A DNA stretch of 48,897 nucleotides from a virus. How positions within the stretch are numbered: the stretch's first letter is position 1; every line of letters starts with the position of its first letter. Made by a program: the position numbers and the translations under genes. Under the pieces are notes generated by a model. It was not told the DNA's origin. It ran no database searches and worked only from the letters and a program-made list of their open reading frames with translations. The DNA is taken from IMG/VR virus record IMGVR_UViG_3300020438_006412, positions 1 to 48,897 of that record; one strand, written 5' to 3'. Below, in pieces: positions 1,196 through 47,975 of this stretch.

Positions 1196-1697
1196 CCTTA
1201 CCCCCATTAATTAACCAAGATGATGATTGAATTTTACCACCACCGATTCCCCATAACATTGTTACATCTTGAGTTCTACAAGTATCTGTTTCAGGGGTAT
1301 TACCCTTTCCCCTATCTCCGCCATTTGCAAAATAGATTTCATAATCATTTCTACCTGTTGGATTTTTACCAATATAATCATGATTAAACATACCACCATT
1401 GTATGTTGTTCTAACTTGACTAATCAATGCATTAGCCGTATCATCTGAATCATCAAACTTAACAACCGAACTAATATACTTAATACCTTCAAGTATTTCT
1501 TTTCTTTCATAGAACTTCATAAATGGTTTTCCCTTTTTACGAGCTAACCATTCATCTGAATTTAATCCTACGATTACTTGATGTCCTAAGTTACTTGCTT
1601 CTCTGAACATTCTCATATGTCCTTTGTGTATTGGGTCGAAACCACCACTTAATATTATTACTGATTTTTTCCAGTCAATATTGAAATTACTACTCAT
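1188..1697 (-). CDS. Cytidylyltransferase-like nucleotidyltransferase (HxGH family)
   Basis: A 169-aa protein with the nucleotidyltransferase signature GGFDPIHKGH at residues 18-27 (HxGH at 24-27), then a GLNSDEWL segment that fits the same Rossmann-like fold. A C-terminal part (NGGDRGKGNTPE, then GIGGGKIQSSSWLI) resembles heptose-phosphate and glycerol-phosphate nucleotidyltransferases and their phage relatives. These enzymes transfer a nucleotide onto a phosphorylated sugar or alcohol and release pyrophosphate; the substrate cannot be read from sequence. Its start overlaps the stop of the upstream Mom/DruA-like gene by one base. With the HAD gene it could form a short route to an activated sugar for DNA or surface modification (inference). 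Confidence 0.82.
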   Translation of the reverse strand: MSSNFNIDWKKSVIILSGGFDPIHKGHMRMFREASNLGHQVIVGLNSDEWLARKKGKPFMKFYERKEILEGIKYISSVVKFDDSDDTANALISQVRTTYNGGMFNHDYIGKNPTGRNDYEIYFANGGDRGKGNTPETDTCRTQDVTMLWGIGGGKIQSSSWLINGGKDE

Positions 1698-2272
1698 TAT
1701 ATTCTCCTAATAAAAATTAATTTTTTGTTTTCTCCTGTAGGCTTTACAAACAATGTTTTTAATTCTTCCTTACTATTCCACTTCATTGAAGATGATTTAT
1801 GTTTAGGTAACCCCGCAGTTTCACCTATCATTTCCCAATTATCTGCTTTATATACAGAACCATTCTTACCACCACCAACAAATGTAATTATGTATTTCAA
1901 TTCGTCACCGTATTTTTCTTTCCACGCCTGTGGTGCTAATTTTCTAAGTTGTTTTAGTATTTGCGTTCCACCATTCTTAATCGATTTTTTCATACAAAAT
2001 CTCCAATTATTAGATACAGTATTAAATACATCTTTATATTCTAATTTTGATAATCCCATATATTTTAACATATCTTTTGGTGGTGGATATACTGAAGAAC
2101 CTATACCAATCATACCAACAGCTTCAAGTGGAAATGTATCATCATCATATATTAACCAATCAATTCTTCTACCTACGGATTGAGATGTTGGAACATAAGA
2201 ATGATGATTTTTTATGATTCTCTTTACCATATTTTTTTGCATATCAGATTTTACTATTTCTAGTTTTATCAA
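1697..2272 (-). CDS. Mom/DUF4338 (DruA)-like putative acyltransferase-type protein
   Basis: A 191-aa protein combining features of two families. Near the N-terminus is NHHSY (residues 22-26), similar to the His-Tyr motif of phage Mu Mom-like proteins. The second half has NNWRFC (88-93), GTQILKQLRKLAPQAWKEKY (102-121) and GSVYKADNWEMIGETAG (138-154). These resemble the conserved C-terminal part of DUF4338 (Druantia DruA), including the G..Y.A.NW..G.T.G signature. Mom adds a carbamoylmethyl group to adenine; the DUF4338 activity is, to my knowledge, unknown. It lies between primase and nucleotidyltransferase in the replication operon, overlapping each by a few bases. A role in DNA modification is inferred; remote assignment only. 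Confidence 0.6.
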   Translation of the reverse strand: MIKLEIVKSDMQKNMVKRIIKNHHSYVPTSQSVGRRIDWLIYDDDTFPLEAVGMIGIGSSVYPPPKDMLKYMGLSKLEYKDVFNTVSNNWRFCMKKSIKNGGTQILKQLRKLAPQAWKEKYGDELKYIITFVGGGKNGSVYKADNWEMIGETAGLPKHKSSSMKWNSKEELKTLFVKPTGENKKLIFIRRI

Positions 2273-31814: not shown

Positions 31815-33941
31815 TCAAATTGTTATCTTAAAATAACCTGCAGTACAACATCCAGCTGGATTATTTTGTGATGATGATAAAGTTGATATAAAATAATAAG
31901 CTCCATTTTGAAAGTTAATACCATCAGCACTCCACGGGTTCAAATCTATAGTTTCAAAAAATGATAAATATGAAAATCCTCCATAATAATCTGAGTTAGT
32001 TCCTGGACCAGAAAGTGAATCATTTGTTACACTTGTTCCATCACACCAAGTACATGGTGTTGTTAAACCTTCATCAAGAAAAAATGAATTACTCATTGTG
32101 GTTGCTATATCTAACACATCTTCTGTAGATGGTATAGCTACTCCTGTAAATCTATCAGGTTGTATATAAATTACAGGTGAAATAATTTCGAAATCACTTA
32201 ACCCATCACATGCAGTAGAATCTAAACAATATGATGATGTTGTTAGTGGGTCTAAATAATTAGTACAAGTTAATGAATTGTCAGTTAAATCATAATTGGG
32301 TAATATACTTCCATCTGTAATTTGATATGATAATCCTAAATAATTTGCTAATAATTCATAATCATTTGTATTTTCAGTCAGTAGTGTATTTGTATTTACT
32401 AATGTGGTTTCTAAAGATGTTATTTCACTTTGAAGTCCATCTATATTAGTTTGTAAATTTTCAGACAACCATTCTAATCCACCACCAACATATTCACTAA
32501 ATTCTGTAATCATTATACCTTGAATATCAAGTAACTCAGTATAGTACCACTCAGGTGGACATTCTGGACAATCTTCTATACATTCAGATTCATCAATAGC
32601 CCAACATTGATAAGTTGCCCAATTAGGACAATCATTTAAATTTTGATCTTCACAAAGAGGACATTCTGATAAATCCTCAACACATTCTAAAGATATAGGA
32701 CAAGTTATTAATCCCTGATTTTCACAATTATTTTCAAATATCGGTTCACAAGTACAATTACAATCTCGTTGATTGTTTGATATTAAAATTTTTACTTCCG
32801 ATTTATATTTTTTATTTGGTGAAGATGATATTAAATTATTTAAATCATTTTGTAAAGTTTGTAAATCTTTATTTTTTACGAATTTTTTTATTATCTTAAT
32901 TTCTGTTAAATCATTGTCGGAAGATCTCATTCCATTTAAAATGATATTTGATATTGCAACTAAATCTAATACATTTACACCACCATCTTGATTTATATCT
33001 CCTGCTTGGAATACACATTCATCCAACTCTTCACCATATAGTACATGTGGAAGTAAAGTTATAATATCTTGAACATTTATTGTACCATCACCGTTTGTAT
33101 CACCTGGAGCATTTGAACACCCGTCACATACAGCTTCAAATCCTTCTACACAAAAGTTATAATTAGGTTGCCCATCTGAACATTCACATGCGTTATATGA
33201 AGGTTCACATGAACACCCCTCACATGTTGGATTACATATAGGTTGAAAGGCACACCCACAGTCATCATAAAAAATATCACAATCTCTTGTTGGATTATCT
33301 TCTTCGGTTGGTGCACATATACATGTAATTGATGGAGGATCTTGAGTATCATCATCACTATCATCATTATCATCATTATCAGAACCACCATCATCGTCTA
33401 AATCATCATTAAAATCATCATCTTGATCTTCATCTGAATCATCTATACCACCCGCATCATCACCATCATCACCACCATACAAACAACTATTATCATCAAC
33501 ATTAGCATTTCTATCATAGTTTGAAGCTGAGGTGTCCATACATCCACCAATAATATTAGTATTACAATTTTGGTTACTATTCCCTTCACAATAAACCCAT
33601 GCACCGGAATCTATCCCATCGTGACCATCATCCGGATGATTATCCCACATAAATAATTCTAAATTATCACCGTGTTCACCGATACTAGCACAATGAGATA
33701 AGATGAGGCCTGATAGTATATCAGAGTTTCCATATTCATAATTTTCAAATACATCATATAAATAAGAACATTGTCTACAACCAGTTTCAGGATCTTGTTC
33801 TTCATTTACAGATCCGAAAGAACCATAACCACAGGCACCACATTCCCATAAAGTAATTTGAGCAGTTGTAGCTTGACCATCATATCCGGTCCAACAGTAC
33901 TCTGGTTGTCTGTTTGGATTATTAGGACTTTGTGTAGGCAT
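31815..33941 (-). CDS. Tail-associated protein with Asp-rich linker and dockerin (708 aa)
   Basis: The N-terminal domain (1-130) has paired Cys (ECGACGYG, CRQCSYLYD). One GCMD-type Cys repeat follows at about 133-155, then an almost purely Asp/Gly/Asn stretch of about 45 residues (155-200) and a Cys-rich part. A two-repeat type I dockerin lies at about 279-336 (GDTNGDGTINVQDI and GDINQDGGVNVLDL). Further Cys clusters, a helical stretch (NIDGLQSEITSLETTLVNTN, about 490-510) and a C-terminal beta domain complete it. The acidic run and the dockerin loops are expected to bind calcium. It lies between the 667-aa LamG protein and the 3104-aa adhesin, so it is probably a virion linker or fibre component; this is inferred from context only. 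Confidence 0.68.
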   Translation of the reverse strand: MPTQSPNNPNRQPEYCWTGYDGQATTAQITLWECGACGYGSFGSVNEEQDPETGCRQCSYLYDVFENYEYGNSDILSGLILSHCASIGEHGDNLELFMWDNHPDDGHDGIDSGAWVYCEGNSNQNCNTNIIGGCMDTSASNYDRNANVDDNSCLYGGDDGDDAGGIDDSDEDQDDDFNDDLDDDGGSDNDDNDDSDDDTQDPPSITCICAPTEEDNPTRDCDIFYDDCGCAFQPICNPTCEGCSCEPSYNACECSDGQPNYNFCVEGFEAVCDGCSNAPGDTNGDGTINVQDIITLLPHVLYGEELDECVFQAGDINQDGGVNVLDLVAISNIILNGMRSSDNDLTEIKIIKKFVKNKDLQTLQNDLNNLISSSPNKKYKSEVKILISNNQRDCNCTCEPIFENNCENQGLITCPISLECVEDLSECPLCEDQNLNDCPNWATYQCWAIDESECIEDCPECPPEWYYTELLDIQGIMITEFSEYVGGGLEWLSENLQTNIDGLQSEITSLETTLVNTNTLLTENTNDYELLANYLGLSYQITDGSILPNYDLTDNSLTCTNYLDPLTTSSYCLDSTACDGLSDFEIISPVIYIQPDRFTGVAIPSTEDVLDIATTMSNSFFLDEGLTTPCTWCDGTSVTNDSLSGPGTNSDYYGGFSYLSFFETIDLNPWSADGINFQNGAYYFISTLSSSQNNPAGCCTAGYFKITI
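32934..33107 (-). repeat. Type I dockerin repeat pair within the 708-aa protein
   Basis: Two calcium-loop-plus-helix halves, GDTNGDGTINVQDIITLL and GDINQDGGVNVLDLVAISN, joined by a linker of about 20 residues. Both keep the D-x-N-x-D-G loop residues. Confidence 0.85.
33475..33545 (-). repeat. Single GCMD-type Cys repeat within the 708-aa protein
   Basis: One unit, GCMDTSASNYDRNANVDD followed by NSCLY, directly before the Asp-rich stretch. It links this protein to the repeat families of the three other large tail proteins. Confidence 0.75.
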
Positions 33942-43495: not shown

Positions 43496-44221
43496 CTATT
43501 TATTAAATAATTCATCAAATTTGGATTTCATATTTTTAATATCTTTATCTGACACTTGTTTACCATTAACTACTTCTACCAAATTTTCTTCTTCACCTTG
43601 CATCCAAGTTTGTTTTTCACATATTGTAGATAACCAATCACCGAAGTGAATGATAGAACCCAAACAATGTCTTGAATCTACATAAGATCTAAAATAAGTT
43701 TCAGCTGCCGGGTCAAATAACCCATCAGCACATAATATAGCTTTGTAAACATGTGGATTAACATCAACATGATACTTAGCCAATATCCATAAAGCTCTAT
43801 CGTGAACTGTCATATAATCTAAATCTTTATTGTGAGTATACCACTCATTTAATTTCTTCCTTCTCCAATCATCTGTTTGGTATTTATAATAAGGTTGTGT
43901 TCCATCACCGAGTTTACCCAAGTCGTGAAACATAGCTGCTAATACAACATCAGCATCTGAATGTATTGGTTTAACTCCATTATGTTCATATTGTTTCTTA
44001 ATCATAAGTGAGTTTTTAATCACATGTAAAATGTGGTCAAGATAACCACCTTTAAAACAATTGTGATAATTTGGACGACCTGATGCAGGTGCTGTTTTAT
44101 ATTCATCTTCAAAGTCACTATGTAACTTTAAGATATTTTCTTTTTGTTCACCTTCAAAATGTTTGTCAATGATTGACATTAATTCTGTCCAGTTATTGTC
44201 CATTTGTTCTTGATTTATCAT
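43496..44221 (-). CDS. HD-domain phosphohydrolase-like protein (241 aa)
   Basis: Contains the metal-binding HD pattern: His in GGYLDHILHV (residue 63), the HD pair in LAAMFHDLGKLGDG (99-100), and later His and Asp residues in AKYHVDVNPHVYKAILCADG. HD proteins hydrolyse nucleotides, cyclic dinucleotides or alarmones, but the substrate cannot be read here. It overlaps the upstream DruA-like gene by four bases (ATGA), so it is translated with the Mom/DruA cassette. It might clear a nucleotide signal or adjust the dNTP pool; both are speculative. Confidence 0.78.
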   Translation of the reverse strand: MINQEQMDNNWTELMSIIDKHFEGEQKENILKLHSDFEDEYKTAPASGRPNYHNCFKGGYLDHILHVIKNSLMIKKQYEHNGVKPIHSDADVVLAAMFHDLGKLGDGTQPYYKYQTDDWRRKKLNEWYTHNKDLDYMTVHDRALWILAKYHVDVNPHVYKAILCADGLFDPAAETYFRSYVDSRHCLGSIIHFGDWLSTICEKQTWMQGEEENLVEVVNGKQVSDKDIKNMKSKFDELFNK

Positions 44222-45300
44222 CTTCCTACTTCTCCTAAATAATTTGTTTTTGCTTCTTCATAGGATAACCCAAATAACTTATCCCAAAAATGTAATTCTG
44301 ATATTACTTTATTATCGGATTTAAGTTTATTATATCTTTTTTCCGCTTTTGGTTTCCACCAATCATTTATATAGTTACTATAATATACGAAAGATTTTCG
44401 TAAAAGCAAAGAGCTTTTTTTAATTTTTCCACATAAATATTCATTTGTATTCTCATAGAATGAACAAAAGTAAATTCCTCGTTGCATTCCACTAACATAA
44501 TCAGCTGGCTTCATACCACACTCTCTGTATATTTTTGTATCTAAATTAGATCTAACTTTTCGTTTCTCACCAAAGTATTCTTCCCAAACCCTAACCATAT
44601 CTTTTGGTAATTTAATTGGCATTTTACCAGTTGTTTTACCCCTCTTCTTAAATGTCGGCATACTATTGTATTGAGAATGTGTTCCATATAATGATGTTGT
44701 AGTCATACCAACTAATATGTCACCATACTTTTCTTCCCAAGCATTTCTAATAACATCTGAAGTAATTAATAATGCCATAAGTTTACCACCTAAAAAGTTA
44801 TGTCCTAATGGTTGCATTGGAATAATTGCTTGTGCACAAGCAATATTATTTAATCTTTTATTTTTATATCTATCATCTCGTGTCCAACCAATATATTTAT
44901 CTCTACCACCCAAGTCACCAAAGTCTGAAGTTACAGTTAATGCACCAAGATATAGTCCAGTTGCTGTATCTTCTACTAAAAATTTCATATTACGGCCGGG
45001 GTTCGACACATTTTTGAAACTTGAAGTGAAACGAATAAGGTAACGCCAATCATCAAGTTGTTCTTTTGTATCTACAAGAATTACTTTCGGTTTAAGATTA
45101 GATATATCCGTTTCATTCCATACCTTACTTTTTAATGTATTGATTTTAAATTTCTCACCTGAACATGCCTGTATCTCGTGATACTTATCAAAGAATACGG
45201 CCTCAGCTGAAGTTTGATTCTTTTTCATTTCTATAAAATCTATTATCTTTTGTTTTTCAATTTCCAAATCAAACTCTTCCACCTCAAAAAAATTATTCAT
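44218..45300 (-). CDS. DUF4338/DruA-like protein B (360 aa)
   Basis: After an N-terminal acidic part, residues 100-226 match the DUF4338 (Druantia DruA) pattern: NPGRNMKFLVED (100-111), YLGALTV (117-123), GGRDKYIGWTRDDR (131-144), IIPMQPLGHNFLGGKL (159-174) and SLYGTHSQYNSMP (203-215), followed by GKTTGKM. DruA belongs to the Druantia anti-phage system, but phage copies may act on DNA modification; the activity is, to my knowledge, unknown. It is a paralogue of the 388-aa gene at the other end of the cassette. Its ATG shares a base with the stop of the Mom-like gene upstream. The C-terminal third (YYSNYINDWWKPKAEKRYNK) is conserved between the paralogues and ends YLGEVGR. Confidence 0.7.
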   Translation of the reverse strand: MNNFFEVEEFDLEIEKQKIIDFIEMKKNQTSAEAVFFDKYHEIQACSGEKFKINTLKSKVWNETDISNLKPKVILVDTKEQLDDWRYLIRFTSSFKNVSNPGRNMKFLVEDTATGLYLGALTVTSDFGDLGGRDKYIGWTRDDRYKNKRLNNIACAQAIIPMQPLGHNFLGGKLMALLITSDVIRNAWEEKYGDILVGMTTTSLYGTHSQYNSMPTFKKRGKTTGKMPIKLPKDMVRVWEEYFGEKRKVRSNLDTKIYRECGMKPADYVSGMQRGIYFCSFYENTNEYLCGKIKKSSLLLRKSFVYYSNYINDWWKPKAEKRYNKLKSDNKVISELHFWDKLFGLSYEEAKTNYLGEVGR

Positions 45301-46025
45301 TATACTACCACCTTAGTTATTGTTAAATCACCCACCACATCAAGCTTAGGATATGGTTTAACGGGATGTTTTAAATTTTTCATTAATCTCTTCTTGTTTT
45401 TTAATAGATATACATACCGATGTTTCAACGGCTCAACTCTATACCAAAAGGTATGTCCAATTTTCTTCTTCAACTTCTCTATATCGTTTGTCTTATAAGT
45501 GTTAGCCAATGTTCTTCCATGTATCCACTCATCATCAGGCTTCAGTTTAAAACTATAAGTGTCATTAGGTCTTATACTATTACCCTGGTATAACCAGTTC
45601 GTTGCTTGGTATATAGTCCCCGCGTGCCCTTCCTTCGGATCTGCATAAGAGATAAGAGCTTTAATATCTGTATTCTGTTTCAACCATTTAAAAGATTGAG
45701 AGATAAACCAACTCTCAATATTCTTACCATAACCATCGTGGATATATAATCTTACCAACTCATAAACTTCAGTTCTATCTAATAATTCAGATATAGAACC
45801 ACCTGAATGTCTGCCTATAGGATCACCATATATTATAACACCAATTAAATCTTCTTTGTTACCACTAAAGAATTTATGTTGTTTACCTGTATCATGAAAT
45901 AAACCTAATGCAACCGAACACTTTGTCCATAGATGAGAGTAGTGATGTTTAACTACCATCCTCTTGGCTATAGACTTTGTAACCTCTCTTACGATTAATT
46001 TACTGGTATCACAATACTTATCCAT
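45300..46025 (-). CDS. Mom-family putative DNA-modification acyltransferase B (241 aa)
   Basis: Matches Mu Mom-like proteins: HHYSHLW at residues 27-33 (His-Tyr motif), LIGVIIYGDP (60-69), VYELVRLYIHDGYGKNIES (87-105) and SYADPKEGHAGTIYQATNW (126-144). Mom makes N6-carbamoylmethyl-adenine in phage Mu DNA, protecting it from restriction, and has a GNAT-like fold. The residues after 145 are a phage-specific extension with basic character (LKKKIGHTFWYRVEPLKHRY). It is a paralogue of the next Mom-like gene and overlaps it by eight bases. DNA-base modification is the best inference; the exact product is not readable. Confidence 0.8.
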   Translation of the reverse strand: MDKYCDTSKLIVREVTKSIAKRMVVKHHYSHLWTKCSVALGLFHDTGKQHKFFSGNKEDLIGVIIYGDPIGRHSGGSISELLDRTEVYELVRLYIHDGYGKNIESWFISQSFKWLKQNTDIKALISYADPKEGHAGTIYQATNWLYQGNSIRPNDTYSFKLKPDDEWIHGRTLANTYKTNDIEKLKKKIGHTFWYRVEPLKHRYVYLLKNKKRLMKNLKHPVKPYPKLDVVGDLTITKVVV

Positions 46026-46761
46026 TTAACTCCCAATATTTCTTTTCTACTTTAGGTGTCATTTCATCACCATCGTGGTAATGATAATCTACTAATGGAT
46101 GTTTCAATTCTTTAATCAACCTTTTCTTTTCCTTCTTACTACAAAGGAAATATAAGTATCTATGTTTTCTAAACTTAACTTTATATTCCATATCAGGTAT
46201 CTTCTTTAGTACACCATGTAAACTATTCACACCTAACTTCGAACCTATTGCTCTATCAGTTAACCATTCTTCGGTATTGGGATATCTATACATAAATGCA
46301 TCACCTCTACCAATATCAAATCCCTGATACAACCAATTAGATGCTCTATATATAATACCTTTATGATTAGCATTCCTATCAGCATAAGATATAACAACCT
46401 TTGTTTGTGGTGAATCTTTCTTTAACATCTTTAAGGTTTGGGATATACAATAAGATTCTATATTCTTACCATAACCATCTTCAATCCATAATCGTTTTAG
46501 TTCCAATACATCATCATCAGTTAACTCTTCACATATAGATTTAACAACCCTAAAACCGACAGGGTTTCCATATACCACACAACCAATAAGTTTTAAATCA
46601 TCACCATCAAAGAACTTGTGATCACCTGATTTGTAGTAAATGGCGTATATATTAGATGAAGCTGTCCAAGTATTAGCATAATGTTTCTGTGTAACTATAT
46701 TCAGTACAGTTTTCTTATCAGATTTTACTATGGTAATTTTATTTTTATCTACCAATGTCAT
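46018..46761 (-). CDS. Mom-family putative DNA-modification acyltransferase A (247 aa)
   Basis: Second Mom-like protein, with the same motifs as its neighbour: QKHYANTW (25-32), LIGCVVYGNPVG, VLELKRLWIEDGYGKNIES and SYADRNANHKGIIYRASNW, then a basic tail (MEYKVKFRKHRYLYFLCSKK). Its spacing of motifs equals the B copy, so they arose by duplication, but they are clearly diverged. Two Mom paralogues in one phage suggests different targets or a heteromer (inference). It overlaps the end of the 388-aa DruA-like gene by 17 bases, which implies translational coupling. No Shine-Dalgarno is apparent before its ATG. Confidence 0.8.
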   Translation of the reverse strand: MTLVDKNKITIVKSDKKTVLNIVTQKHYANTWTASSNIYAIYYKSGDHKFFDGDDLKLIGCVVYGNPVGFRVVKSICEELTDDDVLELKRLWIEDGYGKNIESYCISQTLKMLKKDSPQTKVVISYADRNANHKGIIYRASNWLYQGFDIGRGDAFMYRYPNTEEWLTDRAIGSKLGVNSLHGVLKKIPDMEYKVKFRKHRYLYFLCSKKEKKRLIKELKHPLVDYHYHDGDEMTPKVEKKYWELNG

Positions 46762-47911
46762 TTAAATATTTTTTTCTAGCTTCTTCCCAAGTTAATTCAA
46801 ACATATCATTATAAAATAATGTTTCATCTTTTATTCTACCCTGCTCTAACATTTTGGTATATCGTTTAATTGCCTTTTTCTTCCACCATTTATTAATGTA
46901 TTCGTAGTCTTCTACGAACTTTTTCTTCATTACTAGTTCACTATCATCAATTTCATTTCGTAGGTATTCTAACCCATTGTCGTACATATTAGCAAAGAAT
47001 ACACCCCTTTTGAATCCATGTTCATAATCTTTAAGTTTAAGACCCAAGTGTTTAAATACTTTATTAAGAATGTTTTGTTTAGGACCTGTTCCACTAATAG
47101 CTTTATCAAACTCTTCTCTATAATTTTCTTTCAACCAATCACTCCACACTTTATACACCGAATCATCAGGTTTAGTTGCAATCTTACCCATAGATTCTCC
47201 AAGAGTTTTCCAATGTGGGATTCCGTTGTACTGAGAGTGAACGCCGTAAAGAGAAGTTGTAGTAACACCAATTAAAGTTTCGTTATAATTTTCTTTCCAT
47301 TTGTTTCTGATGGTTGATGTTGTTACTAACGCTGATAATAATTTACCACCGAGAAAGTTAAAACCTAAAGGTTGTGTCGGAACAATTGATGTTCCAATAC
47401 AAGTATGATTTAATTTATGGTCAACAAATTTATTATCTCTTGTCCATTTAATATAATCATCTCTAACTTTAATTGAAGTAACATCTGAACCAACTGATAT
47501 AACACCAAGATATTTTCCTGTAACTTTATCTCTAGCAAAAAATCTAATATTTCTTCCTGGATTTGCAGTGAACTCCATCGATGAAACCAGTGTTCTTAAT
47601 AAAGTCCAGGTTTCAGGTGTTTCAGCTAATTCTACAATCGGGTCCAAATTTTCAATTTCTTTAATTGTTTGTTCTTGATTGTAAATGTCAGTTGGTTTCC
47701 ATATGTTATTATAAAGAATTTCAGCTTTACTATAATTTTTAATAAACTTTTGTCTGGTTGTTTCATCTTTATTAAACTCTAACCATTTTTTATAAAGAGT
47801 TTGTTCCTGTACAGACATAGATTTAAGCATATCAAGATTATTAATAAAGTTTTCTTTTTCTTTATCAAAGTTAAATTCTGTTTCTATATCAAAAAAATTA
47901 TCTAATTTCAT
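46745..47911 (-). CDS. DUF4338/DruA-like protein A (388 aa)
   Basis: First gene of the modification cassette. The DUF4338-like core spans about residues 117-243: NPGRNIRFFARD, YLGVISVGSD, VRDDYIKWTRD, IVPTQPLGFNFLGGKL, SLYGVHSQYNGIPHWK and GESMGKI. It is colinear with the 360-aa paralogue over the whole length, including the YINKWWKKKAIKRYTK segment and the YLNDIGR end. No Shine-Dalgarno is seen; the ATG at 47911 follows an AT-rich stretch. The upstream 65 bases carry five GATC sites, four of them as TGATCA palindromes, and may control the cassette. Confidence 0.7.
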   Translation of the reverse strand: MKLDNFFDIETEFNFDKEKENFINNLDMLKSMSVQEQTLYKKWLEFNKDETTRQKFIKNYSKAEILYNNIWKPTDIYNQEQTIKEIENLDPIVELAETPETWTLLRTLVSSMEFTANPGRNIRFFARDKVTGKYLGVISVGSDVTSIKVRDDYIKWTRDNKFVDHKLNHTCIGTSIVPTQPLGFNFLGGKLLSALVTTSTIRNKWKENYNETLIGVTTTSLYGVHSQYNGIPHWKTLGESMGKIATKPDDSVYKVWSDWLKENYREEFDKAISGTGPKQNILNKVFKHLGLKLKDYEHGFKRGVFFANMYDNGLEYLRNEIDDSELVMKKKFVEDYEYINKWWKKKAIKRYTKMLEQGRIKDETLFYNDMFELTWEEARKKYLNDIGR

Positions 47912-47930
47912 AATTTATAACTATAGTTAT

Positions 47931-47975
47931 TGATCAAGACTTGATCAGCTTGATCAATTGATCAACTGTAAGATC
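47931..47975 (-). promoter_or_regulatory. GATC/TGATCA cluster upstream of the Mom/DruA cassette
   Basis: TGATCA palindromes lie at 47931-47936, 47942-47947, 47951-47956 and 47959-47964, with a fifth GATC at 47972-47975. The cluster straddles the stop of the upstream membrane-protein gene and ends 20 bases before the ATG of the cassette. In phage Mu the mom promoter region also carries GATC sites that control it through Dam methylation. A similar role here is inference. Confidence 0.5.

What the first reader, a model, noticed from the sequence alone, without database searches (positions are those of the whole stretch)
44218..47911. Symmetric DruA-Mom-Mom-DruA gene cassette
Seen: four overlapping genes in the order DUF4338/DruA-like A, Mom-like A, Mom-like B, DUF4338/DruA-like B, each pair being paralogous. 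Known: Mom modifies adenine in phage Mu DNA and DruA is a Druantia defence component of unknown activity. Inferred: the phage carries a duplicated two-part module in which DUF4338 and Mom proteins act together, perhaps to make two DNA base modifications or to counter restriction. I know of no described system with this layout.
Basis: partly seen in the sequence, partly recalled or inferred. Interest (0 to 1): 0.85.

Follow-up and report, generated by a model that had tools for sequence, protein, structure and literature searches.

The report
Phage Mom pair inside DruA pair
A T4-like aquatic phage carries, in one operon, two intact copies of the DNA-modifying enzyme Mom between two copies of DruA, a protein known from a bacterial defence system; relatives show that Mom and DruA genes keep turning up side by side, which suggests that DruA proteins also help modify phage DNA and makes that testable.

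Summary
Four overlapping minus-strand genes at 44218-47911 read, in transcription order, DruA-B, Mom-B, Mom-A, DruA-A. All four pass the Pfam cut-offs; a third DruA-family gene lies at 1697-2272. The layout is not a duplicated DruA-Mom module. In close relatives the two DruA genes stand in tandem without Mom, the slot behind DruA-B is variable, and Mom-A and Mom-B belong to separate clades whose nearest kin lie elsewhere. So a Mom pair entered an existing DruA tandem; the exact four-gene order was found only here. Mom-DruA adjacency itself recurs in at least eight arrangements in phage contigs, often beside DNA polymerase B or clamp genes. Both families share the GNAT fold, and the short DruA-C type aligns with Mom over its length, with His, Arg, Tyr and Asn at matching places. 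Most likely this is a phage DNA-modification (anti-restriction) operon: two active Mom adenine modifiers plus two DruA-type GNATs. The DruA substrate is not shown. A terminal F-[F/W]-[D/E] peptide on DruA and a neighbouring glycosyltransferase-like protein resembles the polymerase C-tail and hints at clamp docking. No other Druantia gene was found, so this is not a Druantia system.

The parts
46745..47911 (-). DruA-B, 388 aa; first gene of the four; N-terminus MKLDNFFDIE
   Evidence: Pfam DruA 3e-20; AF2 pLDDT 87, Foldseek best PDB matches mostly GNAT acetyltransferases, weak E
46018..46761 (-). Mom-B, 247 aa; start codon lies inside the end of DruA-B
   Evidence: Pfam Mom 2.8e-38; H, Y, R, D, Y, N of the Mom site kept
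45300..46025 (-). Mom-A, 241 aa
   Evidence: Pfam Mom 1.9e-50; family profile hits Mu Mom structure 8bv8 at 3.2e-28
44218..45300 (-). DruA-A, 360 aa; N-terminus MNNFFEVEE
   Evidence: Pfam DruA 2.8e-19; 38% identical to DruA-B
43496..44221 (-). HD-type phosphohydrolase-like gene that marks the far edge of the variable slot; overlaps DruA-A by 4 nt
   Evidence: PHROG metal-dependent phosphohydrolase 3.6e-10; conserved position in relatives
1697..2272 (-). DruA-C, third and shorter DruA-family gene (191 aa), next to a primase gene
   Evidence: Pfam DruA 1.3e-11; AF2 pLDDT 83, GNAT fold E 8e-6; aligns with Mom over 171 columns, E 1.2e-5
47912..47953 (-). 42-nt gap upstream of DruA-B with repeated TTGATCAA/TGATCAA motifs; separates the four genes from the next gene upstream
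   Evidence: sequence printed; function not tested

Best explanation
This is a phage DNA-modification operon of four GNAT-fold genes. The two Mom proteins most likely modify adenines of the phage's own DNA as Mu Mom does (transfer of a carbamoylmethyl-type group to N6), and being of two divergent clades they probably differ in target sequence or group added. The two DruA proteins are GNAT-fold enzymes of a sister branch, most likely acting on DNA too, by modifying another base or assisting modification at the replication fork. The result is protection of phage DNA from host restriction. Historically, a Mom pair was inserted between two tandem DruA genes, in a slot that in relatives holds other modification or nuclease genes. 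Shown: families, intact Mom site residues, GNAT fold of DruA (predicted models), recurrent Mom-DruA adjacency, slot variability. Inferred: that DruA acts on DNA, that the four genes work together, anti-restriction as the purpose, and docking on the sliding clamp through the DruA N-terminal F-[F/W]-[D/E] peptide.
For: Family hits. Both Moms keep the residues aligned with Mu Mom H48, Y49, R101, D139, Y149, N153. DruA-B and DruA-C models give GNAT acetyltransferases in PDB, agreeing with PMC10853773. DruA-C aligns with Mom over 171 columns (hhalign E 1.2e-5, prob 81%), and DruA-C with DruA-A/B (E 7e-11). Mom next to DruA in arrangements MMD, MD, DM, Mc, cM, cMM, cMD, ccMMM, DMMD (M Mom, D DruA, c DruA-C), overlapping or within 50 nt where measured; in 54 DruA loci with enough upstream sequence, Mom is directly upstream in 29 and within four genes in 43. 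Slot behind DruA-B holds GmrSD/HNH or ParB-like plus glycosyltransferase-like genes in relatives. DruA lies beside clamp, clamp loader or polymerase B in several T4-like groups. Terminal peptide: 33/40 DruA, 16/31 glycosyltransferase-like, 4/1024 others.
Against: No nucleoside data. DruA-A and DruA-B have lost the His and Arg that DruA-C shares with Mom, so their chemistry may differ. A direct profile comparison of the large DruA with Mom is not significant. Mu Mom 8bv8 is not among the top 50 structural hits of either DruA model. Most DruA-C and most Mom genes sampled are not adjacent to each other; in 50 Mom-selected contigs chance predicts 1.25 adjacent pairs and 6 were seen, in about 4 independent arrangements. 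The exact four-gene order is a single case. The terminal peptide was noticed after the fact and its rows are related.
Confidence: 0.5

Rival explanations
1. Cargo in an exchange slot. The Mom pair modifies phage DNA by itself and only happens to sit between DruA genes because the place behind DruA-B accepts all kinds of genes; DruA has an unrelated job, for example acylating a host or replication protein.
For: The slot holds quite different genes in relatives; DruA-B is kept even when the slot is empty (L006, L007); Mom pairs occur without neighbouring DruA in many phages.
Against: Mom-DruA contact recurs in different orders and at different genome places, with DruA-A/B and with DruA-C types, more often than random placement predicts; DruA-C and Mom are related folds.
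Confidence: 0.3
2. Phage DruA is a decoy or inhibitor of host Druantia defence, not an enzyme.
For: Same Pfam family as DruA of Druantia.
Against: DruA-like genes are widespread in T4-like phages beside replication genes, with many invariant residues, unlike a decaying decoy; the window alone carries three kinds.
Confidence: 0.05
3. The DruA and Mom genes act on RNA or protein (for example tRNA or RNA polymerase) rather than DNA.
For: GNATs commonly act on proteins; phage GNATs that acetylate host RNA polymerase are described (PMC7824862).
Against: Mom is a proven DNA modifier in Mu (established knowledge) and both copies keep its site residues; neighbours in relatives are restriction-type nucleases and glycosyltransferase-like genes.
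Confidence: 0.1
4. The order is an assembly chimera of two phages.
For: Only one contig shows it.
Against: Both flanks keep the synteny of relatives and each junction is a clean start-stop overlap; the Mom-B start uses the DruA-B end just as DruA-A does in relatives.
Confidence: 0.05

Closest known systems
Mom of phage Mu (Pfam PF25680, PDB 8bv8) and other Mom-like phage proteins (PHROG 1384)
   Same: Family, length, site residues H/Y/R/D/Y/N; phage-encoded
   Different: Two divergent copies in tandem, in a T4-like phage operon with DruA genes; no Com gene sought; activity not shown
DruA of Druantia type I (Pfam PF14236, DUF4338)
   Same: Pfam and PADLOC DruA match, over the Pfam cut-off; GNAT-type fold
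   Different: No other Druantia gene found among the window proteins scanned; phage replication setting; DruA-A/B lack the His and Arg kept in DruA-C and in a plasmid DUF4338 protein
DruA-like proteins of cyanophages reported by Phold (PMC12774648) and of pelagiphages HTVC008M and Mosig
   Same: Same phage branch of the family; HTVC008M and S-SCSM2R have it among clamp-loader or polymerase genes
   Different: One DruA per place (HTVC008M has two in separate places); no Mom annotated beside it in the stretches read
DUF4338/GNAT domain fused to DndF (PMC10853773)
   Same: Published statement that DUF4338 is a GNAT domain, in a defence system linked to DNA modification
   Different: Fused effector domain thought to act on proteins; here stand-alone phage proteins
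Mom fused to nuclease in jumbo phages (PMC7824862)
   Same: Phage Mom combined with nuclease genes; in relatives here the slot holds GmrSD/HNH or ParB-like genes
   Different: No nuclease within the window's cassette; partners are DruA genes

Membership tests
Mom family | Profile match above curated cut-off | tested here: met
   171.8 and 132.1 bits against a 27.1-bit cut-off
Mom family | Conserved site residues of Mu Mom (H48, Y49, R101, D139, Y149; their importance is from memory of the literature) | tested here: met
   All present in Mom-A and Mom-B
Mom family | Transfers a carbamoylmethyl group to adenine N6 in DNA | not testable with these tools
   needs LC-MS
DruA family (PF14236) | Profile match above curated cut-off | tested here: met
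   69.8 and 73 bits against 27; DruA-C 44.6 bits
DruA family (PF14236) | GNAT fold | tested here: met
   DruA-C model: E 8e-6, prob 1.0; DruA-B model: weak E (7e-3) but best hits mostly GNATs
Druantia defence system | Partner genes such as DruB-D and helicase DruE next to DruA | tested here: not met
   None of nine other window proteins scanned hits a Druantia model; neighbours are phage genes
DNA-modification operon | Modified base in virion DNA | not testable with these tools
   uncultured phage
T4-like phage | T4-type replication and baseplate genes | tested here: met
   baseplate wedge PHROG 219, primase and RuvC-like resolvase; a 180-kb relative carries a T4-type polymerase B

The most novel reading that the evidence does not exclude
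DruA-family proteins are a second branch of DNA-base-modifying GNAT enzymes, sisters of Mom. In T4-like aquatic phages they work with Mom at the replication fork, held on the sliding clamp by a short terminal F-[F/W]-[D/E] peptide that a neighbouring glycosyltransferase-like protein also carries; DruA in bacterial Druantia would then be a DNA modifier as well.
Probability: 0.25. Interest if true: 0.85.

Novelty: new variant of a known kind. Interest (0 to 1): 0.6.

Why it matters
DruA is a defence protein without a known activity. Its recurrent partnership with Mom in phages, the shared GNAT fold and the bridging DruA-C type point to a concrete, testable activity (base modification of DNA) and supply small single-gene phage versions to test. 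If the terminal peptide is a clamp tag, phages couple hypermodification to replication. Mom in several divergent copies per phage also suggests more than one target or added group.

Tried and rejected
Duplicated DruA-Mom module: rejected by relatives with the DruA tandem alone and by both trees. Membership in Druantia: rejected, no partner genes found. Direct profile comparison of large DruA with Mom: not significant; only the DruA-C type bridges them. Mom profile against PDB found 8bv8; DruA profiles found nothing credible by sequence. Search for a second contig with the DruA-B/Mom-B junction: none. Literature searches for a DruA-Mom link or for DNA chemistry of DUF4338: nothing in the library held. 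DruA-C in bacterial genomes: 3 loci only, no Mom beside it. One adjacency tail printed used 7 contigs and 5 clades; the correct counts are 6 and 4, for which I calculate Poisson tails by hand of about 0.002 and 0.04.

Full report
Observation. Four minus-strand ORFs fill 44218-47911 with overlaps of 1, 8 and 17 nt. In transcription order they are DruA-B (46745-47911), Mom-B (46018-46761), Mom-A (45300-46025) and DruA-A (44218-45300). Pfam, PHROGs and PADLOC agree on the families with strong scores. The DruA pair is 38% identical and the Mom pair 41%. A third DruA-family gene, DruA-C, lies at 1697-2272 beside a primase. The window is a fragment of a T4-like phage: baseplate wedge, primase, RuvC-like resolvase.

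How the layout arose. In the nearest relatives the gene after DruA-B varies: DruA-A directly, overlapping DruA-B by 14 nt (L004, L005, L008, L026); nothing (L006, L007, L009-L012); one or more nuclease-like or ParB-like genes plus a glycosyltransferase-like gene (L013, L015-L018, L020, L025, L028); or Mom, an endonuclease VII-like gene, a further gene and the glycosyltransferase-like gene (L014). In most of these the next conserved gene is the HD-type gene that sits at 43496-44221 in the window. In the window the Mom-B start codon lies in the end of DruA-B at the same place where DruA-A starts in relatives. A tree puts DruA-B and DruA-A in two separate groups, each with its own orthologues. 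Mom-A and Mom-B fall in different parts of the Mom tree. Mom-A's closest relative (89%) sits beside a DruA-C gene in L029, Mom-B's (79%) in a four-Mom array in L038. So the symmetric look comes from a Mom pair placed inside an existing DruA tandem. No second contig with this junction was found.

Is the Mom-DruA contact meaningful? Over the loci held, Mom stands next to a DruA-family gene in these orders: Mom-Mom-DruA, Mom-DruA, DruA-Mom, Mom-DruA-C, DruA-C-Mom, DruA-C-Mom-Mom, DruA-C-Mom-DruA, DruA-C-DruA-C-Mom-Mom-Mom and the window's order (some loci are the same contig fetched twice). In one DruA group, 54 loci have at least three genes upstream in view; Mom is the next gene in 29 and within four genes in 43. 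These loci are related to each other and were chosen by DruA. In a sample chosen by Mom (50 contigs) random placement predicts 1.25 adjacent pairs; six contigs, about four independent arrangements, show it. I calculate tails of about 0.002 and 0.04 by hand, as the script printed the tails for counts that were one too high. The enrichment looks real but moderate, and both kinds of gene tend to lie in the replication region anyway.

What DruA is. PMC10853773 states that DUF4338 is a GNAT domain. The AF2 models agree: DruA-C (pLDDT 83) matches GNAT acetyltransferases with E down to 8e-6, DruA-B (pLDDT 87) with weaker E (7e-3) but mostly GNATs among the best hits. DruA-C aligns with Mom over 171 columns (hhalign E 1.2e-5, prob 81%) and with DruA-A/B (E 7e-11). 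A plasmid DUF4338 protein aligns with DruA-C. DruA-C keeps His24, Arg91, Tyr141 and Asn145 in all 28 rows, at the places of Mu Mom H48, R101, Y149 and N153. That these Mu residues are catalytic is from memory and was not checked in a paper. DruA-A and DruA-B lack the His and Arg but have their own invariant residues (around Q180-P-x-G-x-N-x-x-G-G-K-L and T-T-S-L-Y-G).

A possible tag. DruA N-termini read [N/K]-F-[F/W]-[D/E] or close to it (33 of 40 non-redundant starts), as do 16 of 31 glycosyltransferase-like proteins; 4 of 1024 other proteins do. In a 180-kb relative these two genes carry it at the N-terminus and only a few looser matches are seen elsewhere. Polymerase B of these phages ends in QFFGF or KFFSF, and that of a distant relative in KFFNFK; this is the place of the T4 clamp-binding tail, which reads LDFLFG in RB32 (that it binds the clamp is established knowledge of T4). 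The first nine residues of DruA-B have low confidence in the model, as an unstructured peptide would. In several groups DruA lies beside clamp, clamp loader or polymerase genes. I read this as a hint of clamp docking. It was noticed after the fact, the rows are related, and recombination at gene starts could also spread such a peptide.

Conclusion. Most likely a phage DNA-modification operon with two active Mom enzymes and two DruA-type GNATs that act with them on DNA. The Mom part is well supported by sequence; the DruA part and the cooperation are inference. Laboratory expression with nucleoside mass spectrometry would decide.

Noticed in passing
window 1697-2272: Third DruA-family gene of short type next to a primase; this type is widespread in viral contigs (at least 234 stretches) and is sometimes beside Mom.
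   Followed up: yes
window 47912-47953: Gap upstream of DruA-B with repeated TTGATCAA/TGATCAA motifs, possibly a hairpin or operator.
   Followed up: no
L361:4526-6866 and other loci: DruA and a glycosyltransferase-like protein share an N-terminal F-[F/W]-[D/E] peptide resembling the polymerase B C-tail.
   Followed up: partly
L036:8922-11654: A TonB-receptor-like outer membrane protein gene in a phage contig, suggesting a Bacteroidota-like host; judged from the sequence by eye.
   Followed up: no
L369:4536-5660 (HTVC008M): Second DruA-family gene (Pfam 1.8e-10) overlapping the DNA polymerase gene, annotated only as putative cytoplasmic protein.
   Followed up: partly
L038:1816-4901: Array of four divergent Mom genes in one contig.
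   Followed up: partly
window 31815-33941: Dockerin type I match (3.7e-6) in a large protein of the virion-gene region.
   Followed up: no
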